NCBI GenBank assembly: GCA_016927115.1 | Contig: JAFGNH010000044.1 | Location: 1-43,678 of the forward strand | Reading direction: 5' to 3' | DNA: 43,678 nt | Source of the DNA: Anaerolineales bacterium | GTDB lineage: Bacteria; Chloroflexota; Anaerolineae; Anaerolineales; E44-bin32 | In this document: positions 24,142 through 39,782 of the stretch, one piece after another | Numbering within the stretch: position 1 is the first letter of the stretch | How the letters are laid out: each line of letters begins with the position of its first letter | Notes under the pieces: model-generated | What the model was told of the DNA's origin: nothing | Seen by the model: only the letters and a program-made list of their open reading frames with translations | Database searches by the model: none | Translations under genes and position numbers: made by a program

Positions 24142-24178
24142 TCGCCTTTCAGAGGCACACCTACTTGCTCCAGGCAGA

Positions 24179-25621: not shown

Positions 25622-26460
25622 TACTGCTCCTGCTCCTTCAGATTCAACTCCTCATCTGCTCCCTGCCTGACAACATCCTGTTTCAGGTCACCTATTTCAC
25701 CATTCCGCAGCGCGGTCTCAATGCTTTCATCTCCAGCCAGCAGACGCATCGCAACCCAGCGCTGGTTGGGGAGATCCGGATAGAGTTGATCGAGTTCTCG
25801 TGTCAGCTTGGAGACTGCCTTTTCCAAGCCCGGATCACTGATTTTTCTGTGATGCGGCCTTCCAACCAACCGTCCGCTGGAGATATCGGCGATGACTTCC
25901 AGCAGCTGATCGAAACCTCCACGGGTGCGCGCAATTGTGGGAACCACCGGCACCCCGAGTTCCTTTCCCAGCAACCTGTCCTCGATTTTCCACCCATGGC
26001 GTTGAACTTCATCCATCAGATTCAAGCACACTACAACCCGGTCAGTTATTTCCAGCACCTGGAGCACAAGGTTCAGGTTCCGCTCGAGCCGTGTCCCATC
26101 CACAACGATCACGGTTGCATCCGGCCTGCCGAAGAGTATAAAGTCCCTGGCAACTTCCTCATCCGGGCTTGTCGCCAGCAGCGAATAGGTCCCGGGGAGA
26201 TCAACCAGTTTGTAACGTTCCTGGTTATACTCATAACCTCCTTCAGCACGGGTTACGGTTTTTCCTGGCCAGTTCCCGGTGTGCTGGCGTAGTCCGGTGA
26301 GCGCGTTGAACACAGTGCTTTTGCCGGTATTGGGGTTTCCCGCCAGGGCGACAACATAGTCCCAATCGGTCATATCCACCCCCAGCCGGTGGAGGTTTGC
26401 TGCATGATGAGCCGGACATGATTCACACGCAGACGATGCGATTACAGTTTCATGATCCAT
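25621..26460 (-). CDS. feoB: FeoB GTPase part (split ferrous-iron transporter)
   Basis: 279 aa. A short N-terminal extension with CESCPAHH (Cys12, Cys15, His18, His19) could bind metal. The G domain has G1 GNPNTGKST (41-49), switch [16 protein letters not shown]3 DLPGTYSL and G4 NLMD, with a GDI-like helical region following ([27 protein letters not shown]). It ends after an acidic tail where a normal FeoB would continue into the membrane. GTP binding by this part gates Fe(II) uptake in FeoB. AAGAGGCG precedes the ATG, which overlaps the upstream gene by 11 bp. Confidence 0.93.
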
Positions 26461-27493
26461 GACTCGCCTCTTTTCCGATTGGTGAAACTCGAATGTATTT
26501 TGCCTGGCTCTCTCTCAGCGCAAGGAGGCTGCCGCGTATGCGGTATGCGGTTGGATCACCACCGGGGCTCCGGATTTCCATCTGGACTGTTGTGCCCGGA
26601 AGTAAGCCAAAATCCATCAATCTTCTGCGTTCAACACTACGTAGTTGTGGCATAAGCCGGAGGACAATCGCTTCTTCACCCGGCTGCAGCTGACTGAGTG
26701 CTTCCCCCGCTTCTTCCAGAGGCATTCCAGCCTCAACGGCTGGTTCAACAGACAACTGCACTGCAAGCTTAATGTTTAGCCTTTTTCGCGTTCCCGCTGC
26801 TTCCAGCAATAATTGCTTTTCATCCCTGTCCAGAATCTTGAGCAGCATACCAGGATAATAGCCTTCATCTATCAGTGCTTTGTATGCCCCTATGGGCTGA
26901 TCCTCGATATGTTCAACTTTAACCAGGGTTCCCGGTTCAACATCCGGTAGTGCAATCCACGAAGCGCTGGAGATCGTGCCTGCCGGGGTTGGAATCGGAT
27001 CTCCATGGGGATCACGAGATGGAAAATGCAGTTCTGCCGCCAATGAACGGACATCATCCTCTGTCAGATGATGCTCAACCCATTCTGCCCTCTCATGCCA
27101 CTCCTGCTCTTCATAACCAGTTCTCTCAGCGAGGTAACGCTCATACAAGCGGTGGGCTTGAAGTATAAAAGTGGCGTATTCCCTTCCATTTTCTGAAAGA
27201 GAAACGGGCAACCCCTGTCGTATGACAAGATTATTCGCCAGCAGAAAATCCATTACCTCACTGAATTTATTTTCCCTGCAGCCAAGAGCTTCTGTCAGCC
27301 CATCCTGATCCAGGGTTCGCCCTTCCATTTCTGCAGTCAGAATTACTTTCAGAGCATCTTCAACCAGGATCTTCAGACTTCTGCGCCGGCAGCGCCACAA
27401 GCGGATCACCCCCCCGTTCGGCCAGAAGAGAGACAGCAAAGCCAGGGCCGGCAGCAGGCCGAGGAAAATAAATAATAATGGATGATCTATCAT
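26450..27493 (-). CDS. Membrane-anchored DtxR-like / tandem FeoA-domain fusion protein
   Basis: 347 aa from the ATG at 27493, with AGGAGG four bases upstream; the frame runs open to 27562. Residues 5-24 are one membrane helix followed by RLWRCRRR, so the rest should be cytosolic. Residues about 40-105 form a winged-helix-like region (LTEALGCRENKFSEVMDFLLANNLVIRQG) and 105-170 a DtxR-like dimer/metal region (HRLYERYLAERTG, HERAEWVEHHL, RDPHGDPIPT). Two FeoA/SH3-like domains follow: about 185-245 (ALIDEGYYPGMLLKIL) and 268-345 (RRRLMDFGLLPGTTVQMEI). It replaces a separate feoA and is coupled to the split feoB. It could be a membrane-bound iron sensor or an FeoA-like FeoB partner; DNA binding is uncertain. 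Confidence 0.85.
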   Translation of the reverse strand: MIDHPLLFIFLGLLPALALLSLFWPNGGVIRLWRCRRRSLKILVEDALKVILTAEMEGRTLDQDGLTEALGCRENKFSEVMDFLLANNLVIRQGLPVSLSENGREYATFILQAHRLYERYLAERTGYEEQEWHERAEWVEHHLTEDDVRSLAAELHFPSRDPHGDPIPTPAGTISSASWIALPDVEPGTLVKVEHIEDQPIGAYKALIDEGYYPGMLLKILDRDEKQLLLEAAGTRKRLNIKLAVQLSVEPAVEAGMPLEEAGEALSQLQPGEEAIVLRLMPQLRSVERRRLMDFGLLPGTTVQMEIRSPGGDPTAYRIRGSLLALRESQAKYIRVSPIGKEASHGS

Positions 27494-27580
27494 ACTTCCT
27501 CCTTTTACCATGTCGGCAGCTGTTAATGTCGTGTCGCTGCCATTTGAATCCAATCTGTTCAAACTGGTAAAAATTGAATT

Positions 27581-27726: not shown

Positions 27727-28857
27727 TTAACTTTTTCTCTGTAAATTAATCTCTCTGGCGGAATCATACATCGCAAGAATATTCTCCACCGGGATATCAG
27801 GTTCGATTACATGCGCTGGTGCCAGAATATAGCCACCACCGGGTGCCAGAATCTGTACAACCTGACGAACCCTGGTCCGAACTTCTGACGGAGTACCCTG
27901 CGGCAGTAATTTCTGGTTATCGATAGCACCATGAAATACGAGTTTATCGCCATACAGTGCTTTGATAGCTCCTGGATTCATCCCCTGTGCACCCGGTTGC
28001 AGCGGGTTGAGGACATCAACTCCCATCTCCATCAAATCAGGGATGATAGGTATGATTGCGCCATCACAGTGAAAGAATACCTTCGCGTTTGTCCTTCCCC
28101 GGATAAAACGGATGAGTTCCGTATAGCGTGGTTTGAAGAACTCGCGAAACAGCGCTGGTGAAATCAGAAGACTTGTCTGAGTACCAAAATCATCAGCCAG
28201 TTGTACCATCTCCACATAAGGCCCAACTGAGTCCAGGTACACCTGCCACAAACCTGTTTGGATCTGCAAAAGATGATCGAGCAGGAGATGAGCCCATGAC
28301 TTATTCAGAAGTAAATCCATTAGAAAGTTTTGCATCCCCCGTAGATGCTGACCAAACTCAAACAACCCTCCGGAGACTGGTGCAGCTACCAGCGCATAAT
28401 CAGTTTCTTCATATAAAAACCGGGCTCGTTCCCGCAGACCTTCAGTTCGTTCCGGTCGTAAGGGATCAGGCCATGGATAATGATTCAACGCTGCCTTTTC
28501 AACTTCTGCGAGTGGATGGGTCACACGCTGCGAAAAATGCCCAAGCTGCTCTATTCTGATCCCCCACTCATTCTCATAGCTGCCGTCCGAAAACGTCTGA
28601 CGCCGCAAGTACTCCGGCCCGCGCAAATAAAGGTAATAACAATCAATCCCTAGACGTTCCAGAATAGCCGGGGCTATCTCCATGACCGAATAAAAAGGAT
28701 CCAGCTCCTCCATCTGGAGTGAGACCCCAAGACAGGATGCCAGCCTACGATAAGCCTCGATATGAATGTTGGAAACCCGCCCGCCCAGATCCAGGGGGAC
28801 CCGGTCCGGCTGCTGAAAATCCAGCGCACAACGAACACGTTCTCTATGAGTCTGCAA
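27727..28857 (-). CDS. Uroporphyrinogen decarboxylase-family protein (MtaA/UroD-like, non-heme role likely)
   Basis: 376 aa, TIM-barrel UroD superfamily. Visible segments are RVRCALDFQQPDRVPLDLGG at the start, KVFFHCDGAIIPIIPDLMEMGVDVLNPLQPGA (zinc-site HCDG region of cobamide methyltransferases), LVFHGAIDNQKLLPQG and a C-terminal PAHVIEPDIPVENILAMYD. The N-terminal Arg/Asp signature of true HemE is not evident. Relatives transfer methyl groups to or from corrinoids. The start is a TTG at 28857 with GGGGAG upstream. It is the last gene of the sugar operon, 47 bp after the isomerase gene. The substrate is unknown; demethylation of a methylated sugar is one speculation. Confidence 0.8.
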   Translation of the reverse strand: MQTHRERVRCALDFQQPDRVPLDLGGRVSNIHIEAYRRLASCLGVSLQMEELDPFYSVMEIAPAILERLGIDCYYLYLRGPEYLRRQTFSDGSYENEWGIRIEQLGHFSQRVTHPLAEVEKAALNHYPWPDPLRPERTEGLRERARFLYEETDYALVAAPVSGGLFEFGQHLRGMQNFLMDLLLNKSWAHLLLDHLLQIQTGLWQVYLDSVGPYVEMVQLADDFGTQTSLLISPALFREFFKPRYTELIRFIRGRTNAKVFFHCDGAIIPIIPDLMEMGVDVLNPLQPGAQGMNPGAIKALYGDKLVFHGAIDNQKLLPQGTPSEVRTRVRQVVQILAPGGGYILAPAHVIEPDIPVENILAMYDSAREINLQRKS

Positions 28858-28904
28858 TTGTTCTCCCCTCCATCTTCACTCGTGATAATAAGACCTGGAA
28901 AACT

Positions 28905-29708
28905 TTAAAACTGGAGATACTGTCGCAGATACGCCATACTGGCAGACAAAGTTGATTCATCTGCAATCTCATCACACTCAATTGTCATCGGCCCCATGTA
29001 CCCGACCTTCCTCAGTTGCTTAAAGAAGGTGCTAAAAACAAATGACCCGCGTCCCGGGATTTTCCGGTTATTATCCGCCAGATGTATATGAAAAATTCGC
29101 TCCCCAGCTTGCTGAATTGCCATGGATATATCCGCTTCCTCAATATTCATATGAAAGGTATCCAATAACATCCCTACGGATGGATCTTCCAGATCGGTTA
29201 CAAGTTGGAGCATGTCCTTTACAGTACGGTTATAGCCCAGCTCATAGCGGTTGATCGGTTCCAGGGCAAGTTTGACTCCGGCATCTTCGGCCGTTTTCAG
29301 ACAATCTGCCAGACCATCGCGCACCCACGCCAGGCCCTGTTCCAGCGAGGTTGTTTCGTCAAGCTTGCCCTGCAGGAGGCCAATTAATATGGTTGGCTCT
29401 CCCACTTCCGCACTGGCCCGGATTACTTCCTGCAGTGCAGATGCTGCCTTTCTCCGAATCAGAGAATCAGGATGACTCAAACTGTATCCATAAACCGAAT
29501 GGATCGCACCTGTCCGTATTCCAGAAAGTGTCAATCCACGATCCTGCAGTATCTGACGTATCCTTCCGGGCCCGAGTTGAAAGGGGTTCGCCATAAGCGG
29601 TTCAACACTGCAAAACCCTGCCCTCGCGACTCTATCTAGATAATCCAGCAGATCTGCAGTCCTGAATGAGTCAAAGGATGGACATGCCCACCCCAGGCAG
29701 GTTTTCAT
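28905..29708 (-). CDS. TIM-barrel sugar (phosphate) isomerase/epimerase
   Basis: 267 aa of the AP-endonuclease-2/xylose-isomerase-like family. Expected metal and catalytic acids are in VKLALEPINR (Glu), GMLLDTFHMNIEE (Asp/His), IFHIHLADNNRKIPGRG (His/Asp) and MTIECDE (Glu). These sugar epimerases and isomerases (tagatose/psicose 3-epimerase or hydroxypyruvate isomerase relatives) use Mn2+ or Co2+ to interconvert ketoses or aldoses. ATGA overlaps the end of the upstream cupin gene. Within this operon it probably prepares a ketose for one of the transketolases. The precise substrate is not predictable. Confidence 0.88.
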   Translation of the reverse strand: MKTCLGWACPSFDSFRTADLLDYLDRVARAGFCSVEPLMANPFQLGPGRIRQILQDRGLTLSGIRTGAIHSVYGYSLSHPDSLIRRKAASALQEVIRASAEVGEPTILIGLLQGKLDETTSLEQGLAWVRDGLADCLKTAEDAGVKLALEPINRYELGYNRTVKDMLQLVTDLEDPSVGMLLDTFHMNIEEADISMAIQQAGERIFHIHLADNNRKIPGRGSFVFSTFFKQLRKVGYMGPMTIECDEIADESTLSASMAYLRQYLQF

Positions 29709-30079
29709 GATTGGCCCCGATCATAGGAACCTTGTTTGACTGCCGGCGAAAATACATATACCACCTTGAGAACCGAGTCTCCAACATTTTCTATGCTGTG
29801 TTCAATTCCTGGTGGTACATAGATACAGGTTCCCGGTTCAATCTCCTCCGGTTCACCATTAAAGTAAATCGCCCCATGCCCGGAAAGTACATAAAGAATT
29901 TCTTCCTCCTGCAAATGTACATGCCCGGGAGCATGTTTTCGAGCAGGGAAATCCGCCACACCGAAGGCCATATACCTCGAAGGTCCAAAATGATCCGGGC
30001 TGATAATCATCTTGTGCGCCCGACCGGGTAGCTGAACTGCTTCCTGCTCCCGTTCATGAATTGTATGTTTTCCAGCCAT
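29705..30079 (-). CDS. Small single-domain cupin
   Basis: 124 aa single cupin barrel. Motif 1 is HAPGHVHLQEEEILYVLSGHG (two His plus Glu metal ligands), motif 2 is PGTCIYVPPGIEHSIEN (His). Such proteins bind a metal and may act as sugar isomerase, epimerase or mutarotase-like enzymes or ligand sensors. It starts 3 bp after the transketolase stop and overlaps the isomerase by 4 bp, so it is firmly in the operon. No specific reaction is evident. Confidence 0.85.
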   Translation of the reverse strand: MAGKHTIHEREQEAVQLPGRAHKMIISPDHFGPSRYMAFGVADFPARKHAPGHVHLQEEEILYVLSGHGAIYFNGEPEEIEPGTCIYVPPGIEHSIENVGDSVLKVVYVFSPAVKQGSYDRGQS

Positions 30080-30082
30080 GAT

Positions 30083-31033
30083 CTATCCCTTTCTCTGCAG
30101 CACCCGATAGACAGCTGCAGCAATATGTGCAGCAGTTAACCCGAATTTCTCTGCCAGATACTGCACACTACCTACCTCGCCAAAACAATCTTCAACTCCT
30201 ATCCTCTCAACCGGAACCAACCGGGACTGACAGACCACCTCAGACACTGCGCCAAACAGTCCACCGTAGATGGAATGATTCTCTGCAACCACGATCGCGC
30301 CGGTCTGATTTGCTGCAGCCTGTATCGCCTCGACATCCAACGGCTTCAATGTCGATAGATTCAAGACCCGGGCTGATATCCCCTCCGCAGCCAACAGCTC
30401 TGCTGCCTTCAGCGACCGTGCCACCATCACACCAGCAGTAATGATCGTCAGATCCGACCCTTCCCTTACAGTCATTGCCCGTCCAAACTGGAAATGATAG
30501 TTGTCAGGATCCAGTACCACCGGAACCTTTCCCCGCTCTACTCGCAGGTATGCAGGCCCCTTATGTTCTTTCGCCAGATAGTGCAGGATCTGACGGGTTT
30601 CAACAGCATCTGCCGCCACCAGAACACTCATCTGCGGCAAAGCACGGAAAATCGCCAGATCGAGCATGGCTTGATGAGAGGCACCGTTGCGCCCTGAGAC
30701 CAGGCCAGCCTCCACACCCACCAGCTTCACATTACTCTGGCAGTAGGCTAATGATATTGCGGCCTGATCCAGCGCTCTCTGACTGATAAAGCAGGCAAAA
30801 GTACCGCAAAATACCGTTTTCCCGGCAAGAGCCAAGCCGGCTGCCACTCCAATCATATTCGCTTCCTGGATACCCAGGTCGAAGTAGCGCTCAGGAAATC
30901 GACTGCGGAAAAACTCTGTCTCAGTAGCCCGCTGCAGATCACTATCCAACACTACCAGTTCAGGAACCTCAGCTCCCAAATCAGCCAGAGTATGACCGTA
31001 CACATTTTCAATATAGGATCCTGGCTCACTCAT
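30083..31033 (-). CDS. Transketolase C-terminal subunit, pair 1
   Basis: 316 aa from the ATG at 31033, which overlaps the N-subunit gene by 8 bp (ATGAGTGA); the frame continues to 31126. It contains the pyrimidine-binding domain of a thiamine-diphosphate enzyme (LGIQEANMIGVAAGLALAGKTVFCGTFACFI, with the activating Glu in GIQEANM) and the C-terminal domain (LTIITAGVMVARSLKAAELLAAEGISARVLNLSTLKPLD). It needs the N subunit for a complete active site. The pair should move two-carbon ketol units between sugars. It is diverged from the other C subunit in this operon. Confidence 0.9.
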   Translation of the reverse strand: MSEPGSYIENVYGHTLADLGAEVPELVVLDSDLQRATETEFFRSRFPERYFDLGIQEANMIGVAAGLALAGKTVFCGTFACFISQRALDQAAISLAYCQSNVKLVGVEAGLVSGRNGASHQAMLDLAIFRALPQMSVLVAADAVETRQILHYLAKEHKGPAYLRVERGKVPVVLDPDNYHFQFGRAMTVREGSDLTIITAGVMVARSLKAAELLAAEGISARVLNLSTLKPLDVEAIQAAANQTGAIVVAENHSIYGGLFGAVSEVVCQSRLVPVERIGVEDCFGEVGSVQYLAEKFGLTAAHIAAAVYRVLQRKG

Positions 31034-31898
31034 CCATCTGCCCTCCACTGCCGGCTTTCTCCGCACCCAGTTCTGCCATCGCCTGTTGATATTGCCCCTC
31101 ATTGAGTGCCTTGGAATGCCACTCAAATTGGTCCTCCATGAATGAAACCCCTTTCCCCTTTACAGTGTGTGCAACGATCATATGGGGCGCGCCAGACGTA
31201 ACGAGGGCGCGGTCAATTGCCTTATGGATCTCCACAAAATCATGTCCATTAATTTCCTGTACATCCCAGCGGAAGGAACGCCACTTCTCCACAACGGGCT
31301 CAAGACTGTTAATCTCATCCACCCTTCCATCCACCTGAAGTTTGTTCAGATCCAGGAAGACAATAAGATTATCCAGCTGCAGCTGTGCTGCGGACAGGGC
31401 CGTTTCCCAGATCTGCCCTTCCTGACATTCACCATCACCTATCAGGACATATACGCGCCCCGGTTTCTGGTCGATACGGAATGCCAGCGCCATACCTGAA
31501 GCGACTGATAGCCCCTGCCCGAGCGAACCAGTCGACACTTCAGCGCCGGGGACCAGATGCATATCCAGATGTTTCTGAAGCCGGGTTCCGTCCTGTTGAA
31601 AAGTCTTCAACCAGCTGCGGGGATAAAATCCACGCTCTGCCAGGACGGCATACACCAGTGGTGCAGCATGACCCTTGGAGAGCACAAATCTGTCCCGGTC
31701 CGACCAATGCGGGTTTTCCGGGTGGATACGCATATACTTGAAATAGAGGCTGGTCAGGATTTCAACCGCAGAAAGACATCCTCCTGGATGCCCGGAGCCA
31801 CCAAGGTAGATCATCTCAATTACATCGCGGCGGATTGTGGCAGCCACATTCTGCAGCCTCTCCAGATTCAGCGTTCCTTCAATTATTCCGTTACTCAT
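31026..31898 (-). CDS. Transketolase N-terminal subunit, pair 1
   Basis: 290 aa thiamine-diphosphate-binding domain. It has SGHPGGCLSAVEILTSLYF, RFVLSKGHAAPLVYAVLAERG, VSTGSLGQGLSVASGMALA and the ThDP/Mg motif GDGECQEGQIWETALSAAQLQLDNLIVFLDLNKLQ (GDG-to-NN-type span). A late HTVKGKGVSFMED completes the family. AGGAG lies five bases before the ATG. The segment KHLDMHLVPGAEVSTG keeps His but lacks the HP seen in pair 2 and in standard transketolases. It ends overlapping its C subunit. Unlike E. coli Tkt (about 660 aa in one chain) the enzyme is split. Confidence 0.92.
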   Translation of the reverse strand: MSNGIIEGTLNLERLQNVAATIRRDVIEMIYLGGSGHPGGCLSAVEILTSLYFKYMRIHPENPHWSDRDRFVLSKGHAAPLVYAVLAERGFYPRSWLKTFQQDGTRLQKHLDMHLVPGAEVSTGSLGQGLSVASGMALAFRIDQKPGRVYVLIGDGECQEGQIWETALSAAQLQLDNLIVFLDLNKLQVDGRVDEINSLEPVVEKWRSFRWDVQEINGHDFVEIHKAIDRALVTSGAPHMIVAHTVKGKGVSFMEDQFEWHSKALNEGQYQQAMAELGAEKAGSGGQMDE

Positions 31899-31901
31899 AA
31901 A

Positions 31902-32843
31902 TCACTCCTGAACCATCAGCATATGCCTTGCCGTTTGAACAATGCTGTCTGTATCCATTCCAAATTTTTTCAGCAGCAAGTCATATTCCCCTGATTCCGC
32001 AAATGTGTTCTGAAGGCCAATTCGCCGCACAGGAGTTGGCAGGTGTTCGCCAAGGACTTCCGCCACCGCGCTGCCTAATCCATTTGTTATCTGATGATCC
32101 TCAATAACTACTACCCTGCCGGTATTTACAGCCCGGTCCAGCAGCAGTTCCTCATCAAGCGGTTTTACTGTATGCATATCTATTACATCTGCCTCAATCC
32201 CATCTGCGGACAGGTGATCTGCCGCCGCCAGGGCAAACTGGACCATATCCCCGATAGCTATCAATGTAACCTCTGAACCTTCCCGCAGCAGCTTTCCTTT
32301 TCCGATCTGGAATATTTCGTCCGCCGGATAGAGTACGGGCACAGGATCCCGTGTGAATCGTAGATATACCGGGCCTGGCCAGCTTACAGCAGCTCGCACA
32401 AGACTGCGGGTAGATATTGAATCCGCAGGCATAATGATGGTCATATGGGGGATCGTACGCAGTATGCCAATATCTTCGGTAGCCTGATGCGTTACTCCAT
32501 CATTTGATGCTGTTAAACCGCCGTGCGAAACAGCTATCTTCACATTCAAGTTGGGATAGGCGATAAAAGTGCGGATCTGTTCGCAGGCCCTCATCGAGGC
32601 GAAAACCGCATACGTACTCACAAATGGTATGTATCCGGTAGTAGCCATGCCGGCTGCTGCGGCCATCATATTGGCTTCAGCCACCCCCATCTGGAAAAAG
32701 CGCTCCGGAAAAGCTCTGGCAAAATGACATGTACGGGTGGATTTTGATATGTCCGCTTCAAAGACCACCACATGGTCATTTTCCTGGCCCAGATTTTTAA
32801 GGACTTCCCCATAGGCGTCTCGCGTTGGTACTGCTTCAGTCAT
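31902..32843 (-). CDS. Transketolase C-terminal subunit, pair 2
   Basis: 313 aa from the ATG at 32843, which overlaps the upstream N-subunit gene by 8 bp (ATGACTGA). Pyrimidine-binding motif FQMGVAEANMMAAAAGMATTGYIPFVSTYAVF includes the catalytic Glu. HGGLTASNDGVTHQATEDIGILRTIPHMTIIMPADS and the C-terminal domain (VTLIAIGDMVQFALAAADHLSADGIEADVIDMHTVKPLD) follow. It retains the GVTHQATEDI region typical of DXS/transketolase C-subunits, where pair 1 reads GASHQAMLDLAIFRALP. That difference lies near the substrate entrance and suggests a different acceptor or donor. Confidence 0.92.
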   Translation of the reverse strand: MTEAVPTRDAYGEVLKNLGQENDHVVVFEADISKSTRTCHFARAFPERFFQMGVAEANMMAAAAGMATTGYIPFVSTYAVFASMRACEQIRTFIAYPNLNVKIAVSHGGLTASNDGVTHQATEDIGILRTIPHMTIIMPADSISTRSLVRAAVSWPGPVYLRFTRDPVPVLYPADEIFQIGKGKLLREGSEVTLIAIGDMVQFALAAADHLSADGIEADVIDMHTVKPLDEELLLDRAVNTGRVVVIEDHQITNGLGSAVAEVLGEHLPTPVRRIGLQNTFAESGEYDLLLKKFGMDTDSIVQTARHMLMVQE

Positions 32844-33714
32844 AGGTTTGCTCCTCAAGCTCGCGCAGGGCTTCTGCCAGCTGGTTATCATTTGGTGCCC
32901 TGCCATGCCAATCACATTCATTCTCCATAAAGGAGACACCTTTGCCTTTCACGGTGTGGGCAAGAATAACCTGCGGCCTGGCGCTCAAAATACGGGCTTT
33001 CTCAACCGCCGGGAGAATCTCACGAAAATCATGGCCGTTTATACACTGCGTATCCCACCCGAATGCCTGCCATTTGCCTTCCAGCGGCTCAAGCGGCATT
33101 ATTTCTTCACAGGTACCATCCAGTTGAAGGTTGTTGTAGTCAACAATTACCAGCAGGTTTCCCAACTGGAATTTTGCTGCAGCCATCGCTGCTTCCCAGA
33201 TCAAACCTTCATTCAATTCACCATCACCCAACAGCACCGTGACTTTTGCCTGGCTCTCTGCAAGGCGCAGCCCCAGTGCCATCCCTATTCCAAGGGAAAC
33301 CCCATGTCCGAGTGATCCGGTTGTCATATCCACCCCGGGCGGTTTTCCCATGATGGGATGCCCCTGCAGCCGCCCATTTATCTGGCGTAAAGTTTTCAGT
33401 TCTTCACGAGGAAAATACCCTCGCTCGGCCAACGCCGCGTACAACACGGGGCAGGCATGGCCCTTCGAGAGTAAAAAGCGATCCCGGTCTGGCCATCCCG
33501 GGCGCTCTGGATCAATGTTTAGGATATGGAAATACAGGGCAGTGACAAGGTCTGCAGCAGAGAGAGACCCTCCCGGATGTCCGGATTGAGCAGCATGGAT
33601 CATGGTCAGGATGTCCTGACGCACAACAACTGCAGTCTGCTGCAGGTTCATGATTATCTGATCATCAGCTTTCGACTGATTTTTTTGATCTGCTCTTGTA
33701 CGTTTCCCTTGCAT
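32836..33714 (-). CDS. Transketolase N-terminal subunit, pair 2
   Basis: 292 aa. SGHPGGSLSAADLVTALYF, RFLLSKGHACPVLYAALAERG, GHPIMGKPPGVDMTTGSLG (standard GHP His) and GDGELNEGLIWEAAMAAAKFQLGNLLVIVDYNNLQLDG show a complete ThDP-binding half. HTVKGKGVSFMENE completes it. The start is taken at the ATG at 33714, with a weak AGAGAG upstream; a later ATG (MNLQQ) is an alternative. A 117-bp gap separates it from the preceding cupin, the largest gap within the catabolic part, where a secondary promoter is possible. By eye it is a clearly diverged paralogue of pair 1, not a recent duplicate. Confidence 0.92.
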   Translation of the reverse strand: MQGKRTRADQKNQSKADDQIIMNLQQTAVVVRQDILTMIHAAQSGHPGGSLSAADLVTALYFHILNIDPERPGWPDRDRFLLSKGHACPVLYAALAERGYFPREELKTLRQINGRLQGHPIMGKPPGVDMTTGSLGHGVSLGIGMALGLRLAESQAKVTVLLGDGELNEGLIWEAAMAAAKFQLGNLLVIVDYNNLQLDGTCEEIMPLEPLEGKWQAFGWDTQCINGHDFREILPAVEKARILSARPQVILAHTVKGKGVSFMENECDWHGRAPNDNQLAEALRELEEQTYD

Positions 33715-33831
33715 AGGTTTTATTTCTCTCTATTAACCCGCGGCCCGTTTTATCCAACCGCGCAAACATATAAGGTGTTCTGACACACATTTTTCAACAC
33801 TATGTTGTCGATAGTTCCAAGTACAGAACGT

Positions 33832-34239
33832 TCAGGCTTCGCCGCGGGCAGCCTTCTCTTTCAGATCTGGATGTTTATCAAAAACCCACCCGGCGGGCGA
33901 TTGGATCCACAGCACCTCCAGTGGGGTGGCGTGCGGGTTTTCCAGATTGTGATAGGTGCCAGGAGGAATAAAGATTGCATCCTTGGGCGCAATTTCCCAT
34001 GGTTCGCGCTTCTCTCCTATATACACAATTCCACGGCCATTCAGGCAGAAGAAGATTTCTTCCTGTTCATCATGAGCGTGGCCGGGTTCACAAATACCAC
34101 CAGGATCCACTGAAACCATCCCAAAAGTCAGATGCTGCGATTCGACTGTTGTCGGATCTATCAGCTTGAAATTAGTGCGTTCATTCAATCGGATTGGCTC
34201 TACATCGTACGGACTGACTTTCACCGGTTTTCTCGCCAT
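33832..34239 (-). CDS. Cupin-domain protein of the sugar operon
   Basis: 135 aa single cupin barrel. Motif 1 is EPGHAHDEQEEIFFCLNGRGIV with two His and Glu, motif 2 is PKDAIFIPPGTYHNLEN with His. The N-terminal ~35 residues and the C-terminal helix (DKHPDLKEKAARGEA) are extra. It sits between the MBL hydrolase and the first transketolase genes. A metal-dependent isomerase, mutarotase or lactone-handling role is possible but not shown. It is distinct in sequence from the other small cupin in the operon. Confidence 0.85.
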   Translation of the reverse strand: MARKPVKVSPYDVEPIRLNERTNFKLIDPTTVESQHLTFGMVSVDPGGICEPGHAHDEQEEIFFCLNGRGIVYIGEKREPWEIAPKDAIFIPPGTYHNLENPHATPLEVLWIQSPAGWVFDKHPDLKEKAARGEA

Positions 34240-34292
34240 TTACAGCTCCTTGGTTTTTCTTTTTCTGCAGGAAACTTCGTCCCTTCACAATC

Positions 34293-35045
34293 TCACCTGA
34301 TCACACCATCCGGATAGCGCGTATACATCTCCGGGTCATGGCCAGGCAGCAGGATATCTCCCATTGTGGGCAGCCGCTTGATGAATGCCATCACCTCGTA
34401 CAGATCCACATAAAGACCAATCGGGAGCTGTTCTTCGATATTCTTATAAATGAAACAGTTATCACCACACAGGCAAACGGTTCCAGTATTCGTTTCTACC
34501 TGAACAACCATACATCCCGGCGCATGACCACCGACATAATGCACCATAATACCCGGCAGCACTTCATAAAAATCCGTATCAATTACCCGCAACTGATCGT
34601 ACACTCGATTCAGTTTGCGGGAAGAAAATTCTCCATATCCGATAGCCCAGGACGGCAAGTCCATCACCCATTCCAGTTCCTTACGGTGAATGTAGATCAC
34701 AGCCCTCGGAAAGGCATCCACAAAACCGACGTGATCGAAATGTGCATGGGTAAGGATAAGATGAGAAACATCTGATGGCTGAATACCCACCTGCGATAGG
34801 GCACCGATAGGATCCTCAGCTTCCTCCCGCATGACCTCACCGGCAATCCCCAATACTTCTGCATCCTTGAGATCGAAGCTGCTGTCAATCAGCACCACAC
34901 CATCATCAGTACGCATGTAAAAGAGAGGTACTACGCCCTGATGGACGACCGATGGATCGCCTCCCATGTAGAGGTAATCTTCACGGGATGGGACACTCCC
35001 GGTTTTCACAAAGCGCAGTTCCGTTTTTTTATTAATAGCCATCAT
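34293..35045 (-). CDS. MBL-fold hydrolase, lactonase-like
   Basis: 250 aa from the ATG at 35045 with GGAGG five bases upstream; the frame opens at 35060. The metallo-beta-lactamase zinc motif is THAHFDHVG, followed by HRKELEW, the GGHAPGCMVVQVE His and CLCGDNCFIYKN (Asp). The final His is in LLPGHDPEMYTRYPDGVIR. Architecture is closest to the N-acyl-homoserine-lactonase-like group, which opens lactone rings. In this operon a sugar lactone or an ester of the imported sugar is a likely substrate; quorum quenching is the main alternative. Cytosolic, no signal peptide. Confidence 0.88.
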   Translation of the reverse strand: MMAINKKTELRFVKTGSVPSREDYLYMGGDPSVVHQGVVPLFYMRTDDGVVLIDSSFDLKDAEVLGIAGEVMREEAEDPIGALSQVGIQPSDVSHLILTHAHFDHVGFVDAFPRAVIYIHRKELEWVMDLPSWAIGYGEFSSRKLNRVYDQLRVIDTDFYEVLPGIMVHYVGGHAPGCMVVQVETNTGTVCLCGDNCFIYKNIEEQLPIGLYVDLYEVMAFIKRLPTMGDILLPGHDPEMYTRYPDGVIR

Positions 35046-35061
35046 GCCTTCCTCCAGCATC

Positions 35062-36036
35062 TCAGGTACTCTTTCCGAAGCGATCTATACTCACTGCCAG
35101 CAGTAACGTCATCCCCTTGATCACCATCTGATAGTAATCATGTACATTCAACAGAATTAAACCATTGCTTATTATTCCGATAATAAGGACACCCAGAAAC
35201 ACATTCTGGATCTTGCCCTCACCACCAGCGATACTCACGCCCCCCAGAACCACTGCCGTGATCACGTCCATCTCAAATCCATTTCCTGCAGTAGGTTGAG
35301 CGCTGTTAATTCGACCCATCAGGATCATAGCCGCCAGGCCAACAGTCAAACCACTCAGGGCATATGCGATCAACCGGGTTCGGTTGATATCTACACCGCT
35401 TAATCGTGTTGCCTCTTCATTTCCACCGGTTGCATAGAAATAGCGCCCCAACGGAGTATAGTTCAACACAACATAACCGATCAGGAAAAGTGCCAGCATT
35501 ATGATCACAGGCACCGGGATTGGACCTACATACCCTGCTCCCAGGAACTTGAAGGAAGGCGGGAAACTATAGATCGGAATCCCCCCGGTGATCACATAAC
35601 CAATACCCCGGAGTGCTGTCATCATCGCCAGGGTGACAATAAGCGGTGGCACCCTGACATGAATCACCAGCAGAGCATTTATTAATCCAACCATCAGCGC
35701 AACAAGCAGTCCAGCTGTAATAGCTATTGGCACCGGCAGGTCAAACTGATTCATGAACAACGCCGTTACAATACCTGAAAGAGCGAGATTGGAACCAACC
35801 GACAGGTCAATCCCTCCCGCAACCATCAGGAAAGTAGTCCCGACTGCTGCTGTCCCCAGAATCGAAACCTGTCGTGCGACATTGATTAAATTGGATGGTC
35901 GCAGGAAAATCGGTGTCGTAAGAGCGAAAATCAAACTTATACACAGCAATGCAAGCAAAAGACCCCAACCCTGCATCACTGAACGAAGCTTTAAACGAAA
36001 TCTTCTCTGCTTTTTATACTGGTCCATATCACGCAC
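35062..36036 (-). CDS. Ribose-type ABC transporter permease
   Basis: 324 aa from a GTG at 36036 (AGGAG five bases upstream); alternatives are ATG at 36027 and TTG at 36051. About 9-10 membrane helices of the RbsC family. LMVAGGIDLSVGSNLALSGI and the coupling segment YATGGNEEATRLSGVDINRTRL are diagnostic; ITAVVLGGVSIAGGEGKIQNVFLGVL is also typical. As a homodimer it forms the channel for the sugar delivered by the binding protein. It starts 26 bp after the ATPase gene and ends 16 bp before the lactonase gene, all one operon. Confidence 0.93.
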   Translation of the reverse strand: MRDMDQYKKQRRFRLKLRSVMQGWGLLLALLCISLIFALTTPIFLRPSNLINVARQVSILGTAAVGTTFLMVAGGIDLSVGSNLALSGIVTALFMNQFDLPVPIAITAGLLVALMVGLINALLVIHVRVPPLIVTLAMMTALRGIGYVITGGIPIYSFPPSFKFLGAGYVGPIPVPVIIMLALFLIGYVVLNYTPLGRYFYATGGNEEATRLSGVDINRTRLIAYALSGLTVGLAAMILMGRINSAQPTAGNGFEMDVITAVVLGGVSIAGGEGKIQNVFLGVLIIGIISNGLILLNVHDYYQMVIKGMTLLLAVSIDRFGKST

Positions 36037-36062
36037 CTTATCTCCTGACAAATCCTGCCTCC

Positions 36063-37556
36063 TTATTCACCACCACAGGCAAGCTGCAAAAGAGTTTCTT
36101 GGGTTGCCTTTTCCTTCTCCAGTACTGCCATTAACCTGCCCTCAAACATGACCCCGATACGGTCCGACATACCGATAACCTCAGGAAGCTCATCAGAAAT
36201 GATCAGCAGTGCATGCCCTGCAGCTGCCAGTCTTTGCATCAACTGGTAAATTTCTGTCTTGGCCCGGACATCAATTCCTCGTGTAGGTTGGTCAAGAATC
36301 AACAGGGATGATTGTGTTGCCAGCCATTTGGCCAGAACTACCTTCTGCTGGTTGCCGCCACTCAGATAGCGCACCTCCTGAGACGGTCCAGCTGTTACAA
36401 TGCGCAAATCTTCAATTTGACGTTGTGATTCGGCAATTTCAGAACGCTGGTTCAGTAATCCGGATTTTGTGAACGATCGGATGGAAGGCAGGGTAATATT
36501 TTTCTGCAGAGACATACCCAGTAGCAGCCCCTGCTTCTTTCGGTCTTCTGGTATCAAACCAATACCCTGTGCGACTGCATCAGCCGGTCGATGAAGATGG
36601 AGACGAGAACCACGTAACCAAATCTCTCCTTCGGGATAGGTATCCGCACCAAAAATAGCCCTTGCAATCTCTGTTCTCCCCGAGCCCACAAGCCCGAAGA
36701 GGCCAAAGATTTCTCCTTCCCGTATTGAGAAGCTTATCGGATCACCCTCATTCTTGAGTTTCAACCCCTGCACTTGCAGCAGTTCCTTGCCCGACGTATT
36801 GACCGCCTTCGGGTACTGTTCTTCGAATTTATCTCCAACCATCCTTTCAATCAGGTTGTTTCGCTCCGTTTCCGAGCAGGTTAATGTTCCGTTATAGATA
36901 CCATCGCGTAGAATGGACACACAATCACAGATCTCAAATATTTCCTCCAGGCGATGAGAGACATACACTATCGACAGACCGCGATCACGCAGCATGCGAA
37001 TCCTGTCGAAAAGGTGATCGATTTCCTCCACAGTAAGCGCTGCTGTAGCTTCATCCACAATCAGGATGCGGGCCTCTTGGAGCAGTGCAGCAGCCACTGC
37101 AACCATTTGCTGATAAGAAACAGACAGATCCGCAACTTTATCCTCAGGCGAAATTGGCATCCCCAGTTCATCAAGAATCTGCTGAGTGCGATTCCTCATT
37201 GCTTGCTCGGACAACAAACCACACCGCATCCGGATCTCGTGTCCTAAGAAAACATTCTGCGCTACGTTAAGCTGCGGAACCAGGTTCAGGTCCTGATGAA
37301 TTACCTGAATCCCCTCTTGCTTTGCTTTAGCAGGTGTAAGCGGAAGAATCGAACGGCCATCCAGGAAAACTGAACCGTTATCAGGTTGAATTGCCCCGGC
37401 CAGAATTTTAATCAGAGTTGATTTTCCTGCTCCATTTGCACCAATCAAACCGTGCACCTCGCCACTGTTGAACGAGATGCTGACCTGATCCAACGCGCGG
37501 ACCCCGGGGTATTCTTTAAGCAGATTCTCTGTTGATAACGCCCATGATTCCGTCAC
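36063..37556 (-). CDS. Ribose-type ABC transporter ATP-binding protein (two nucleotide-binding domains)
   Basis: 497 aa, RbsA family. Domain 1 has GANGAGKST, LSVSYQQMVAVAAAL and ILIVDEATAALT. Domain 2 has the degenerate Walker A GLVGSGRTEIARA, LSGGNQQKVVLAKWL and LILDQPTRGIDV. Length and motif decay in domain 2 are normal for monosaccharide ATPases. It powers the adjacent permease. It is separated from the binding-protein gene by 123 bp with a strong hairpin, the same layout as in the nucleoside importer of this window. It is a paralogue of that ATPase, with a different operon and transporter class. Confidence 0.94.
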   Translation of the reverse strand: MTESWALSTENLLKEYPGVRALDQVSISFNSGEVHGLIGANGAGKSTLIKILAGAIQPDNGSVFLDGRSILPLTPAKAKQEGIQVIHQDLNLVPQLNVAQNVFLGHEIRMRCGLLSEQAMRNRTQQILDELGMPISPEDKVADLSVSYQQMVAVAAALLQEARILIVDEATAALTVEEIDHLFDRIRMLRDRGLSIVYVSHRLEEIFEICDCVSILRDGIYNGTLTCSETERNNLIERMVGDKFEEQYPKAVNTSGKELLQVQGLKLKNEGDPISFSIREGEIFGLFGLVGSGRTEIARAIFGADTYPEGEIWLRGSRLHLHRPADAVAQGIGLIPEDRKKQGLLLGMSLQKNITLPSIRSFTKSGLLNQRSEIAESQRQIEDLRIVTAGPSQEVRYLSGGNQQKVVLAKWLATQSSLLILDQPTRGIDVRAKTEIYQLMQRLAAAGHALLIISDELPEVIGMSDRIGVMFEGRLMAVLEKEKATQETLLQLACGGE

Positions 37557-37632
37557 CAGTCAATCATCCTCCACATTTCCCTTGATCCGATCCTGGTGTC
37601 AAAAAAGCTGATCGAATATTCTTGAATATCTG

Positions 37633-37661
37633 GTGGAGAGGAAATACTATTCCCTCTCCAC
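37633..37661 (-). promoter_or_regulatory. Intercistronic stem-loop after the sugar-binding protein gene
   Basis: GTGGAGAGG (37633-37641) and CCTCTCCAC (37653-37661) form a 9-bp stem, extendable by GAA/TTC with a one-base bulge. No T-run follows on the minus strand. A second small inverted repeat (ATATTC-GAATAT) follows. Position matches the hairpin in the BMP operon, suggesting differential expression of binding protein over ATPase. Confidence 0.55.
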
Positions 37662-37679
37662 GTTTCATGCATAAGTAGA

Positions 37680-38675
37680 TTATTCTTCTGTGTAGAACTG
37701 GTCGAGATTCATCTCTGTGACTGCTACCGGGACGATTTCCATGCTGGAGGGTACGAACTCATTCATCACCATGCGAATGGCCATTTCCATCTCCAGGCGT
37801 CCGTGATTGTAAGGATCAATCGATGCCGTGCCGCGATATACGGTACCCTCAGCGATTTTGCTCAGTGCTTCCTGCGATGCGTTGACCCCGAAAATTCCGA
37901 AATCATCGCTTGCAAGCCCGGCCGATTCCACAGCAGCCAGTGCTCCAAGACAACCTTCATCGTTGTAGCATACAAAGACTTTTACATCCGGGTTGGCTTG
38001 CAGAATCGTCTCAGCAGCGTTCAGACCAAGTTCTGCTGTATCCGCAGCCGCCTCTGCCACAATCTCAGCACCAGGTGAGAATGTAGACAGTGCATCCCGC
38101 ATCCCTTCAGTCCGATCAATATCGAATTCGGTCTTATCCCAGATCAACAGGGCTACATCCGCACTACCACCAAGTTCATTATTGATCCACTCCGCTGCCA
38201 TTTCTCCTGCTGTGAACCCCATGCCATATGTACTTATCCCCGAATGCAAATCCTGTGAATTCAATAGGTTGTAATGGGCGATTACCTTTATCCCTTCGCG
38301 CCGAGCAGCCAGAATTACTTCATCTAACGTTGGAGGATCAATCGCAGTAATAATGAAAGCATCAATACCCATTTGTGTCCAATTTTCAATTGCAGCGACC
38401 TGTGCCGTCACATCCTCTTTGGGATCAACCTCCAACACTTGAACATTGACTCCCGGATATTCAGCGGCCATATCCTTGTATCCTCGACTGAGTTCAACAA
38501 AATACGGTTGTACCAGCCCCATGGTCATAATGCCTATCTGCATTTCCTGCTGCTCAGCAGATTCCCCAACCTCTGCCGGCACCTCTGCATCCGCCGGAGC
38601 AGCTGTTGAACAGGATGTCAGCAGCAGTAGAACCGACAGCAAGATCAGCGTAAATCTCTTCCAATGAGTATACAT
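37680..38675 (-). CDS. Periplasmic-type sugar-binding lipoprotein (Peripla_BP_4)
   Basis: 331 aa from the ATG at 38675 with GGAGG six bases upstream; the frame remains open to 38807 but the extra residues would bury the signal peptide. The signal peptide (KRFTLILLSVLLLLTSC) ends in lipobox LTSC, so it is a membrane-anchored lipoprotein. The mature domain IGIMTMGLVQPYFVELSRGYKDMA, FIITAIDPPTLDEVILAARREGIKVIAH and VFVCYNDEGCLGALAAVESAG are those of ribose/xylose-type binding proteins. It is the first gene of a 12-gene operon and defines its substrate as a sugar, identity unknown. Confidence 0.92.
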   Translation of the reverse strand: MYTHWKRFTLILLSVLLLLTSCSTAAPADAEVPAEVGESAEQQEMQIGIMTMGLVQPYFVELSRGYKDMAAEYPGVNVQVLEVDPKEDVTAQVAAIENWTQMGIDAFIITAIDPPTLDEVILAARREGIKVIAHYNLLNSQDLHSGISTYGMGFTAGEMAAEWINNELGGSADVALLIWDKTEFDIDRTEGMRDALSTFSPGAEIVAEAAADTAELGLNAAETILQANPDVKVFVCYNDEGCLGALAAVESAGLASDDFGIFGVNASQEALSKIAEGTVYRGTASIDPYNHGRLEMEMAIRMVMNEFVPSSMEIVPVAVTEMNLDQFYTEE

Positions 38676-39025
38676 TTGTTTCCTCCAGTTGATTTTTCTT
38701 TGAATATGAATGGACTGCCCATTCGTATTTTCTGAAAACGAAGAACAGCCAATTACTGCAGATCCTGTATATTCGATTCCATTAATTTTACTTTGTGCCA
38801 TAGACATCCCTTCACTTGATAGTTATGCATTCCGCTAAGATTGTGAACAACCCCGATCTAAACTGTTTTCTACTAATCAATGGGAAACTGCCGTGAATCA
38901 TCCAGCTACAGCAACACTGCCGTAACACTTATGTTTATTTATCAACAATCTTCTCTTTGCTGCATGGATAAGGAGTAACCTTTTAAACTCCATTTAATTT
39001 ATTCCTCAATGCCCCCTCTTCTACT
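38676..39025 (-). other. Long (~350-nt) 5' leader of the sugar operon
   Basis: From the predicted transcription start near 39025 to the ATG at 38675 is about 350 nt. It holds a 31-codon frame (ATG at 38995, MEFKRLLLIHAAK..., stop near 38900) with GAGG about ten bases upstream, and an in-frame extension of the binding protein from 38807. No known riboswitch was recognised. The length hints at post-transcriptional control or an additional internal promoter. Confidence 0.4.
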
Positions 39026-39233: not shown

Positions 39234-39782
39234 ATGGCAAACCCGGGGTACAAAATGCGCAAAGCCCGAAAAGCAAAAGATATGACTCTATCTGATCTCG
39301 CAAATAAAACTGACCTGACCAGTAGCCTACTGAGTCAGGTCGAACGAGGCCTGGCAGATCCTTCACTCAGTTCCTTGCGCAAAATCGCCACAGCTCTGGA
39401 TGTACCGCTGGCGTACTTTTTTATCGAAGGAAAAGATACTGAAGAGATAATGCATGAAGCGGATCGGAGCACTCTGGTTTCCAAGCAGCGAAGTGTATCC
39501 TATGAATTTCTGTCCAATAATAAAAGCAGCCAGCTGGAATTCCTGCACCTTCGCATCCAGCCCGGCGGATATTCTGCTTCGGAGTTTGACACCCATACCG
39601 GCGAAGAATGCATTTATGTCCAGAAGGGAACGCTGACATTATCCATCAATGATCTGGAATACCAGCTTAAACCCGGTGATAGTATTCATTTTAAAAGCGA
39701 AACCCCCCATCGATGGGTCAATACCGGACAGGATGATGCGGTTGTGTTCAGCGTGGTAACACCAGCTAAATCATGGTCTTAG
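39234..39782 (+). CDS. XRE-family transcriptional regulator with C-terminal cupin sensor domain
   Basis: 182 aa. Residues 8-62 form a lambda-repressor-like helix-turn-helix (MRKARKAKDMTLSDLANKTDLTSSLLSQVERGLADPSLSSLRKIATALDV). Residues about 105-175 form a cupin domain (FDTHTGEECIYVQKGTLTLSINDLEYQLKPGDSIHFKSETPHRW) with metal-binding His and Glu. The family includes PuuR- and SinR-like regulators that sense small ligands through the cupin. AGGAAGGAG precedes the ATG. It is divergent from the sugar operon and most likely represses it until the sugar or a derivative binds. Operator candidates lie in the 170-bp region between the promoters. Confidence 0.92.
   Translation: MANPGYKMRKARKAKDMTLSDLANKTDLTSSLLSQVERGLADPSLSSLRKIATALDVPLAYFFIEGKDTEEIMHEADRSTLVSKQRSVSYEFLSNNKSSQLEFLHLRIQPGGYSASEFDTHTGEECIYVQKGTLTLSINDLEYQLKPGDSIHFKSETPHRWVNTGQDDAVVFSVVTPAKSWS

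What the first reader, a model, noticed from the sequence alone, without database searches (positions are those of the whole stretch)
27727..38675. Kinase-free sugar operon with two split transketolases
One minus-strand operon combines a ribose-type ABC importer, an MBL-fold lactonase-like hydrolase, two cupins, two complete N+C split transketolases, a TIM-barrel isomerase/epimerase and a UroD-family protein. No sugar kinase, aldolase or dehydrogenase is present. Known routes with split transketolases (apulose-4-phosphate AptAB; sulfofructose SqwGH) either carry a kinase or act on an already anionic sugar, and use a single transketolase. Two paralogous ones suggest sequential two-carbon removals (for example C6 to C4 to C2) from a sugar that needs no phosphorylation, or one that is already charged. 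This could be an undescribed pathway.
Basis: partly seen in the sequence, partly recalled or inferred. Interest (0 to 1): 0.8.

Follow-up and report, generated by a model that had tools for sequence, protein, structure and literature searches.

The report
Kinase-free sugar-acid transketolase operon
A run of twelve same-strand bacterial genes holds an importer, a predicted lactone-opening enzyme and two different two-part transketolases but no sugar kinase, and it likely breaks down a sugar acid by clipping off two-carbon pieces without first adding phosphate, a route we found no description of.

Summary
In detail: twelve minus-strand genes (27727-38807) encode a ribose-type ABC importer, an MBL lactonase-like protein, two cupins, two N+C transketolases (TK1, TK2), an IolO-like epimerase and a UroD-family protein, with no sugar kinase, aldolase or dehydrogenase. 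TK1 keeps the phosphate clamp. TK2 has lost most of it (E. coli numbering R358E, S385A, H461E, D469N; R520 kept), at positions engineers change to move TktA toward unphosphorylated substrates. R358 is lost in 4 of 106 rows, two of them the TK2s of the two adjacent N-C-N-C clusters found. In the window's TK1 subclade 6 of 6 other loci carry a lactonase, LarA or carboxylate importer, against 5 of 79 other TK loci; in the wider clade only 13 of 26 carry a marker. A near relative has LarA-TK1-cupin2-epimerase in one row. I read this as a kinase-free sugar-acid transketolase route. Substrate, acceptor and order of steps are not shown. TK2 is not seen beside TK1 in the nearest relatives. Two TK pairs in one locus recur in three other places (L098, L259, L051).

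The parts
37680..38675 (-). Substrate-binding lipoprotein of a CUT2 (ribose-type) ABC importer; ORF open to 38807
   Evidence: Peripla_BP_4 142 bits; best NCBIfam RbsB 73 bits against cut-off 337, RhaS 47 against 342; nearest solved chains 2ioy, 4irx
36063..37556 (-). ABC importer ATPase (sugar type, two ABC domains)
35062..36051 (-). ABC importer permease, ribose/arabinose type
34293..35060 (-). MBL-fold hydrolase, lactonase-like; HxHxDH motif intact (motif recalled)
   Evidence: Lactamase_B; AiiA, AttM and 4-pyridoxolactonase best but far below cut-offs; AiiA-type lactonases best in PDB; relatives lie in clusters with SDRs, one of them Lra1-like
33832..34239 (-). Cupin1, small metal cupin
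   Evidence: Cupin_2
32836..33714 (-). TK1 N subunit (thiamine-binding half)
   Evidence: Transketolase_N 190 bits; catalytic residues kept
31902..32843 (-). TK1 C subunit; phosphate clamp R358 S385 H461 R520 and D469 kept, F434 is Y; ORF open to 32939
31026..31898 (-). TK2 N subunit
30083..31033 (-). TK2 C subunit; clamp altered: E358 A385 E461 N469, R520 kept; ORF open to 31126
29705..30079 (-). Cupin2, small metal cupin; 70% identical to the cupin beside TK1 in L238
28905..29708 (-). Xylose-isomerase-like TIM barrel, IolO / ketose-3-epimerase type; E150 D183 H186 H209 R215 E244 invariant in a 5-row alignment
27727..28857 (-). UroD-family (MtaA/CmuA-like) protein with HCDG where the solved methyltransferase has HICG
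   Evidence: same HCDG in L040, the L210 place
39234..39782 (+). Divergent HTH + cupin regulator, likely controls the run
   Evidence: position only

Best explanation
This run of twelve genes is likely an operon for using a sugar acid or its lactone without any sugar kinase: the substrate would enter by the ABC importer, the MBL protein would open a lactone, the IolO-like enzyme would invert the carbon next to the ketone, and the two transketolases would move two-carbon units from the unphosphorylated keto-acid onto acceptors that join the pentose phosphate pool. Shown by sequence: the genes, intact catalytic residues in both transketolases, TK1's complete phosphate clamp, TK2's altered clamp, and the genes that keep company with TK1 in its nearest relatives. 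Inferred: that the substrate is a 5-keto-hexonate-like acid; that TK2, with E358/A385/E461/N469, takes the unphosphorylated donor; that TK1 either does so too or hands the two-carbon unit to glyceraldehyde-3-phosphate; that the cupins open rings or isomerise the four-carbon product so that a second cut can give glyoxylate. The UroD-family protein's role is unknown; a methyl transfer is one guess.
For: (1) The window's TK1 subclade (7 rows, 100/96) has a lactonase, LarA or carboxylate importer in 6 of 6 other loci (L098, L167, L168, L238, L239, L240), and its sister branch L211/L212/L243 has MBL in 3 of 3, against 5 of 79 other genome contigs TK loci and 2 of 13 other TK loci of the window's genome, family and class. 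The three relatives found by TK sequence in the other order have a TRAP/TTT permease in 3 of 3 against 2 of 79 (Fisher 1e-4). (2) L238 has LarA - TK1 (C 71%, N 65%, one frame) - cupin2 (70%) - TIM (43%) in one row. LarA homologues include D-gluconate 2-epimerases (PMC7583248, passages). (3) TK2 is changed at R358, S385, H461 and D469; TktA R358I/H461S/R520Q has raised activity on 5-keto-D-gluconate (PMC12016104, passages), and S385/D469/R520 were changed to leave phosphorylated acceptors (PMC5073344, passages). R358 is lost in 4 of 106 TK-C rows: window TK2, its two relatives L194 and L043, and TK2 of L098, which lies on a separate branch. (4) L098, the other adjacent N-C-N-C cluster, has a TRAP importer, SDR, IolO-like epimerase (197 bits), two D-2-hydroxyacid dehydrogenases and glycerate 2-kinase. 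(5) Clusters found through MBL in 7 other genomes all have cupin2 and an SDR; UroD is in L207, L210, L211; L248 has UroD beside TK1.
Against: No ligand, product or expression evidence. In the wider TK1 clade (27 rows, 99/89) only 13 of 26 other loci carry a marker, and in its third subclade only 4 of 17; L249-L252 look like housekeeping surroundings, so TK1's clade is not a sugar-acid clade as a whole. The markers were chosen from TK1-clade loci after seeing them; L211 and L212 came in through MBL. LarA also turns up beside TKs of the other clade (L071, L086, L095, L195, L196). TK2 keeps R520, the third residue of the engineered TktA; that variant's reported gain was 55.3%, so wild-type TktA also acts on 5-keto-gluconate. 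In L259 two TK pairs share a locus and both keep R358. The importer is of a type that usually carries neutral sugars (recalled). No dehydrogenase is in the run, so the substrate must arrive already oxidised or be oxidised by an unlinked enzyme (four SDRs of 157-225 bits elsewhere in the genome, none over the rhamnose-dehydrogenase cut-off of 400). Only 2 of the 7 MBL clusters carry a TK in the stretch held. L194, the closest TK2 relative, has no sugar genes nearby (by eye). TK2's acidic residues would not obviously favour a carboxylate.
Confidence: 0.45

Rival explanations
1. Neutral-ketose route: the epimerase would make a TK-ready neutral ketose (for example from allulose or tagatose), TK2 would cut the unphosphorylated ketose, TK1 would be an ordinary pentose phosphate helper, and the MBL protein would deal with a side product.
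For: CUT2 importer; the TIM barrel also matches D-psicose 3-epimerase (109 bits); TK2's clamp loss suits a neutral donor; a TK2 relative, L043, sits with two Rpe-like 3-epimerases, a HAD-type phosphatase and a sugar importer permease (named by eye); half of the wider TK1 clade shows no acid marker.
Against: The nearest TK1 relatives keep company with acid genes (6 of 6); best family of the TIM barrel is IolO (181 bits).
Confidence: 0.22
2. Oxidative 6-deoxyhexose (rhamnose/fucose-like) or O-methyl-sugar route that has lost or unlinked its dehydrogenases: the lactonase, cupin2, UroD and TK1 would do the same jobs as in the L206-L212 and L243 clusters.
For: Shared MBL, cupin2, UroD and TK1 families; L210 has a RhaS-like binding protein (339 bits vs 342); L212 has a RhaS-like one (272), an Lra1-like SDR (315 vs 400), a corrinoid protein and part of L-rhamnose isomerase.
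Against: The window's binding protein is not RhaS-like (47 bits); no Lra1-like SDR over cut-off in the genome; identities of MBL (30-38%) and UroD (31-32%) are low.
Confidence: 0.15
3. Sulfosugar route like sulfo-TK.
For: Split TK, isomerase-like TIM barrel, no kinase; sulfo-TK does C6-C4-C2.
Against: Neither TK has the RAFDR motif (TK1 RSYHR, TK2 EAFER); no sulfoacetaldehyde reductase or dehydrogenase or exporter in the run; a lactonase has no place there.
Confidence: 0.05
4. Ordinary pentose-phosphate enzymes next to a sugar importer: two spare transketolases with standard substrates.
For: TK1 keeps every canonical residue tested except F434Y; several TK1-clade relatives (L249-L252) sit among housekeeping genes (by eye).
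Against: A full-length TK exists in the genome; TK2 lacks most of the phosphate clamp; conserved core with LarA/cupin/epimerase.
Confidence: 0.13

Closest known systems
Sulfo-TK pathway (SqwGH, SqwI; Clostridium sp. MSTE9)
   Same: Split TK acting on an unphosphorylated, charged ketose; isomerase; no sugar kinase; two successive two-carbon removals (PMC11659671 and PMC12890257, passages)
   Different: One TK used twice, RAFDR clamp, sulfonate handling and export genes; here two TKs, RSYHR and EAFER, lactonase, cupins, IolO-like epimerase
Apulose-4-phosphate transketolase AptAB (recalled, no text seen)
   Same: Split TK in a sugar operon with an ABC importer
   Different: Needs a kinase; none here
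TktA R358I/H461S/R520Q on 5-keto-D-gluconate; proposed plant tartrate route (PMC12016104, PMC11066805, passages)
   Same: TK cutting an unphosphorylated 5-keto-hexonate; R358 and H461 are altered in TK2 too
   Different: Engineered, or proposed in plants; R520 is kept in TK2; not a bacterial operon
IolO 5-keto-L-gluconate epimerase (TM0416)
   Same: Closest family and solved relative of the TIM barrel
   Different: 181 of 300 bits; no inositol dehydrogenase in the run
Oxidative clusters L206-L212 and L243, rhamnose-type where annotated (L210, L212; L243 by 84% identity to L212)
   Same: MBL, cupin2, UroD and TK1-clade TK in various subsets
   Different: They carry SDRs, RhaS-like binding proteins or E1-type enzymes; the window does not

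Membership tests
Transketolase (TK1, TK2) | Thiamine-binding and catalytic residues H26 H66 H100 D155 E160 N185 H261 E411 H473 (roles recalled) | tested here: met
   alignment to E. coli tktA from NZ_CP019944.1
Canonical phosphosugar transketolase (TK1) | Phosphate clamp R358 S385 H461 R520, plus D469 | tested here: met
   all kept; F434 is Y
Canonical phosphosugar transketolase (TK2) | Phosphate clamp R358 S385 H461 R520, plus D469 | tested here: not met
   E, A, E, R, N
Sulfo-TK pathway | RAFDR clamp of SqwGH | tested here: not met
   TK1 RSYHR, TK2 EAFER
Sulfo-TK pathway | Sulfoacetaldehyde reductase or dehydrogenase in the cluster | tested here: not met
Apulose-4-phosphate route (AptAB) | Sugar kinase in the cluster | tested here: not met
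   definition recalled
IolO 5-keto-L-gluconate epimerase | NCBIfam NF041099 cut-off 300 bits | tested here: not met
   180.6 bits
Ketose 3-epimerase superfamily | Metal ligands E, D, H, E and the catalytic pair | tested here: met
   E150 D183 H209 E244, H186, R215 invariant in 5 rows; residue roles recalled
AHL/pyridoxo-lactonase MBL | NCBIfam cut-offs (AiiA 375, AttM 390, pyridoxolactonase 325) | tested here: not met
   69.9, 68.5, 66.3 bits
Aldonolactonase function | Hydrolysis of a sugar lactone | not testable with these tools
   needs an assay
Sugar-acid transketolase (proposed) | Activity on an unphosphorylated keto-aldonate | not testable with these tools
   needs an assay; company of genes only
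UroD / MtaA methyltransferase | NCBIfam cut-offs (MtaA 400, hemE 303) | tested here: not met
   45.7 and 23.7 bits

The most novel reading that the evidence does not exclude
A two-transketolase relay: TK2 is a natural transketolase that has given up its phosphate clamp to take two-carbon units from an unphosphorylated sugar acid, and its canonical partner TK1 passes them into the phosphorylated pentose pool, so that the pair replaces a sugar kinase. The window and L098, apparently from different phyla, reached the same pairing with TK2s from separate branches.
Probability: 0.15. Interest if true: 0.8.

Novelty: new variant of a known kind. Interest (0 to 1): 0.6.

Why it matters
It would add a kinase-free, aldolase-free way to use sugar acids, give a natural example of what enzyme engineers have tried to build (a transketolase for 5-keto-gluconate and tartaric semialdehyde), and name a TK1 subclade and a residue signature (loss of R358) by which such routes can be looked for. 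It also places uncharacterised cupin, MBL and UroD-family proteins in a testable pathway.

Tried and rejected
Sulfoquinovose route: rejected on clamp motif and missing genes. Ascorbate-like route (lactonase plus 3-epimerase as in ula): considered because the S. pneumoniae ula2 operon holds a split TK (PMC4324149, passages); no PTS and no UlaD-like decarboxylase among the Pfam matches here, so kept only as a thought. Thermotoga inositol route (IolN/IolO): the one paper looked at for it (PMC3750489) has no mention of IolN or IolO; no dehydrogenase in the run. Corrinoid hits near Geobacteraceae split TKs turned out to lie in methionine-synthase-like ORFs (by eye). Own-genome pairs C137 (L194) and C197 (L202): no sugar context for the first, another TK operon for the second. 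A TIM-barrel scan of 400 phylum genomes gave six relatives of 35-38% with no TK beside them in the short stretches held.

First claim corrected on re-check: I had counted acid markers in 11 of 15 TK1-clade loci, but only 12 of the 23 other genomes had been looked at. Fetching the remaining 11 gave 2 more with a marker and 9 without, so the clade figure is 13 of 26 and the claim is narrowed to the window's own subclade (6 of 6). A further two-pair locus (L259) was fetched because one search listed two hits on one contig; I had earlier missed it. Confidence was lowered from 0.5 to 0.45 for this, and the neutral-ketose and housekeeping rivals raised a little.

Papers: passages only from PMC11659671, PMC12890257, PMC12016104, PMC11066805, PMC4324149, PMC3750489, PMC8317047, PMC7583248, PMC11770544, PMC5073344; abstract and outline of PMC12632266; other papers seen as search listings only. 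'No description found' rests on the eight paper searches in an open-licence library, whose lists were cut to 8-20 titles in six of them (one search listed all 5, one search found none); subscription papers are missing. No structure was predicted.

Rows dropped: of 81 loci (L043-L123) 68 gave a TK-C row (70 rows, plus 2 from the window), because the ORF picker preferred long antisense frames in the others. L203 was translated in a wrong frame (12 stops) and dropped; the long-branch row L051_16810 was dropped from the trees. One search missed the TKs for the same ORF-picker reason and was redone. Only the two best of the 157 other genomes were fetched with flanks (503 and 489 bits; the next has 377).


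Full report
Observation. Searches confirm a tight minus-strand run of twelve genes between 27727 and 38807: CUT2-type binding protein, ATPase, permease, MBL hydrolase, cupin1, TK1-N, TK1-C, TK2-N, TK2-C, cupin2, IolO-like TIM barrel and UroD-family protein, with a divergent HTH-cupin regulator at 39234 (+). Their Pfam matches include no kinase, aldolase or dehydrogenase. The window is a whole contig (C60) of a 4.8-Mb draft genome of 92% completeness. Names of protein hits such as 'Anaerolineae bacterium' suggest Chloroflexota; the organism is not told, so this is inference.

Two transketolases of different kinds. TK1-C, TK2-C and TK2-N match the split transketolase of Carboxydothermus hydrogenoformans best among solved structures (6yaj/6yak; TK1-N was not searched). 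Aligned to E. coli TktA, both pairs keep H26, H66, H100, D155, E160, N185, H261, E411 and H473. TK1 keeps R358, S385, H461, D469 and R520 and has Y for F434. TK2 reads E358, A385, E461, N469, R520. In trees of TK-C halves TK1 and TK2 fall in different clades, so they are not a recent duplication. TK2 groups with an orphan pair of the same genome (L194, 67% identity) and with L043 of the same family (100/99).

How unusual TK2 is. R358 is lost in 4 of 106 TK-C rows (4 of 93, none of 13 more) and R520 in 1 of 106 (L256, K). The four are TK2 (E), L194 (D), L043 (E) and the second TK of L098 (K). L098 is the only one of the 80 genome-contig loci with two adjacent N-C pairs (44 of the 80 are longer than 15 kb). 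L051 has two pairs about 6 kb apart. L259, from the window's class, has two pairs with a cyclase-like gene and an SDR between them, plus a cupin and a binding protein; both its TKs keep R358, and one has T at 469. The L098 TK2 branches apart from the window's (100/96 and 100/94 forks), so loss of R358 beside a canonical TK1 seems to have arisen twice. The 80 loci came from a scan seeded with TK2, and 13 of 81 loci gave no row.

Why the altered clamp matters. E. coli TktA with R358I/H461S/R520Q turns 5-keto-D-gluconate into tartaric semialdehyde, with 55.3% more activity than wild type (PMC12016104, passages). A review of plant tartrate formation proposes the same cut and notes that a non-phosphorylated substrate must be recognised (PMC11066805, passages). 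Directed evolution away from phosphorylated acceptors changed S385, D469 and R520 (PMC5073344, passages). TK2 naturally departs at R358, S385, H461 and D469 but keeps R520. A Thermotoga maritima TK accepts uronic acids as acceptors (PMC8317047, passages). That TK2 works on unphosphorylated keto-acids is inference from these positions.

What keeps company with TK1. The full TK1 clade has 27 rows (99/89), with tyrosine at 434 in 27 of 27 (16, 11; also in three outside rows, L087-L089). It has three parts. The window's part (7 rows, 100/96) holds L238, L239, L240, L098, L167 and L168. L238 is a 4053-base contig with a LarA-family racemase, TK1 in one frame (C 71%, N 65%), cupin2 (70%) and TIM barrel (43%); the window has the same TK1-cupin2-TIM order with TK2 between TK1 and cupin2. 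L239 and L240 (65-69%) have an SDR and a gluconolactonase-type SMP-30 protein, L239 also an HpcH/HpaI aldolase; L098 and L168 a TRAP importer; L167 a tricarboxylate-type importer. So 6 of 6 carry a marker. The second part (L211, L212, L243) has MBL in 3 of 3. The third part has 17 rows, of which 4 (L241, L242, L248, L258) carry a beta-keto-acid cleavage enzyme and 13 carry no marker; L249-L252 look like housekeeping surroundings. Over the clade that is 13 of 26 other loci, against 5 of 79 other genome contigs TK loci and 2 of 13 other TK loci of the window's genome, family and class. The markers were picked after seeing loci of this clade, and L211 and L212 came in through MBL. The fairer test is the three relatives found by TK sequence in the other order: 3 of 3 with a TRAP/TTT permease against 2 of 79 (Fisher 1e-4), though the permease queries came from those three.

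The MBL cousins. Searching 298 class genomes with the MBL protein gave 7 other genomes at E 1e-30. All 7 clusters have cupin2 and at least one SDR; UroD is in L207, L210 and L211; a TK1-clade transketolase in L211 (one frame) and L212; E1-type thiamine enzymes in L206, L208, L211 and L212 (by eye except L212). L212 has a RhaS-like binding protein (272 bits of 342), an Lra1-like dehydrogenase (315 of 400), a corrinoid protein and part of L-rhamnose isomerase; L210's binding protein scores 339 of 342 for RhaS. So MBL most likely opens the lactone made by a dehydrogenase there. The window lacks such dehydrogenases, and its binding protein scores only 47 bits for RhaS, so its sugar is likely a different one. 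UroD also lies beside TK1 in L248.

The second adjacent N-C-N-C cluster. L098 has a TRAP importer, two D-2-hydroxyacid dehydrogenases, an SDR (252 bits against 215 for a broad glucose-1-dehydrogenase model; 214 against 279 for gluconate 5-dehydrogenase), an IolO-like epimerase (197 bits), TK1, TK2 and glycerate 2-kinase (247 of 550). These would fit oxidation of an aldonate, adjustment of its stereochemistry, two-carbon removal and salvage of a short acid. This too is inference.

Model. Importer, then lactone opening by MBL, then ring opening or isomerisation by the cupins, then inversion next to the ketone by the TIM barrel (established for IolO and ketose 3-epimerases; recalled), then two-carbon transfer by TK2 and TK1. 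A C6 acid would give a C4 semialdehyde and, after isomerisation and a second transfer, glyoxylate, as sulfo-TK gives sulfoacetaldehyde. Which TK does which cut, and what accepts the two-carbon unit, is open; TK2's altered clamp makes a phosphorylated acceptor less likely for it.

Novelty. Split TKs in kinase-free routes are known (sulfo-TK), and TK chemistry on 5-keto-gluconate is known from engineering and a plant proposal. None of the titles listed by the eight paper searches describes a bacterial sugar-acid TK operon or such a two-TK pairing; most lists were cut. I file it as a new variant of a known kind.

Noticed in passing
L195, L196, L197, L199 (same class as the window): A different recurrent TK cluster: split TK (Y461/N469 in the two rows read, L195 and L197), TIM barrel, a GAPDH-like dehydrogenase and phosphoglycerate kinase, with a ribose-type ABC importer in L195, L197 and L199 and a binding protein at the contig end of L196; no sugar kinase recognised (named by eye). 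LarA hits in L195 and L196.
   Followed up: partly
L259 (G222:C7): Two TK pairs of different clades in one locus with a cyclase-like gene and an SDR between them, a cupin and a binding protein nearby; one TK has T at 469, a position used in directed evolution.
   Followed up: partly
L071, L086, L095: Split TKs of the D461/N469 type with a ribose-type ABC importer and a LarA hit, including the named Carboxydocella thermautotrophica.
   Followed up: no
L212:499-1131 and L206-L212: Oxidative, partly rhamnose-type clusters with lactonase, SDRs, E1/E2 thiamine-lipoyl enzymes and, in L212, a corrinoid protein, possibly for a methylated deoxysugar.
   Followed up: partly
L194 (G000:C137): Orphan TK2-like pair in the window's own genome, clamp D/A/E/N, no sugar genes recognised nearby.
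   Followed up: yes
window 27727-28857, L210 and L248: UroD-family proteins recur in these sugar clusters, with HCDG at the usual zinc motif in the window and L210; function unknown.
   Followed up: partly
window 105-1910: AcsV-like corrinoid activation protein (476 bits of 800) at the contig end, beside a B6-type ABC importer at 2042-6818 and adenosine deaminase at 7818-8939.
   Followed up: no
window 23322-27562: Feo iron uptake with two proteins holding iron-dependent-repressor domains directly downstream of the run; FeoB is in two ORFs.
   Followed up: no
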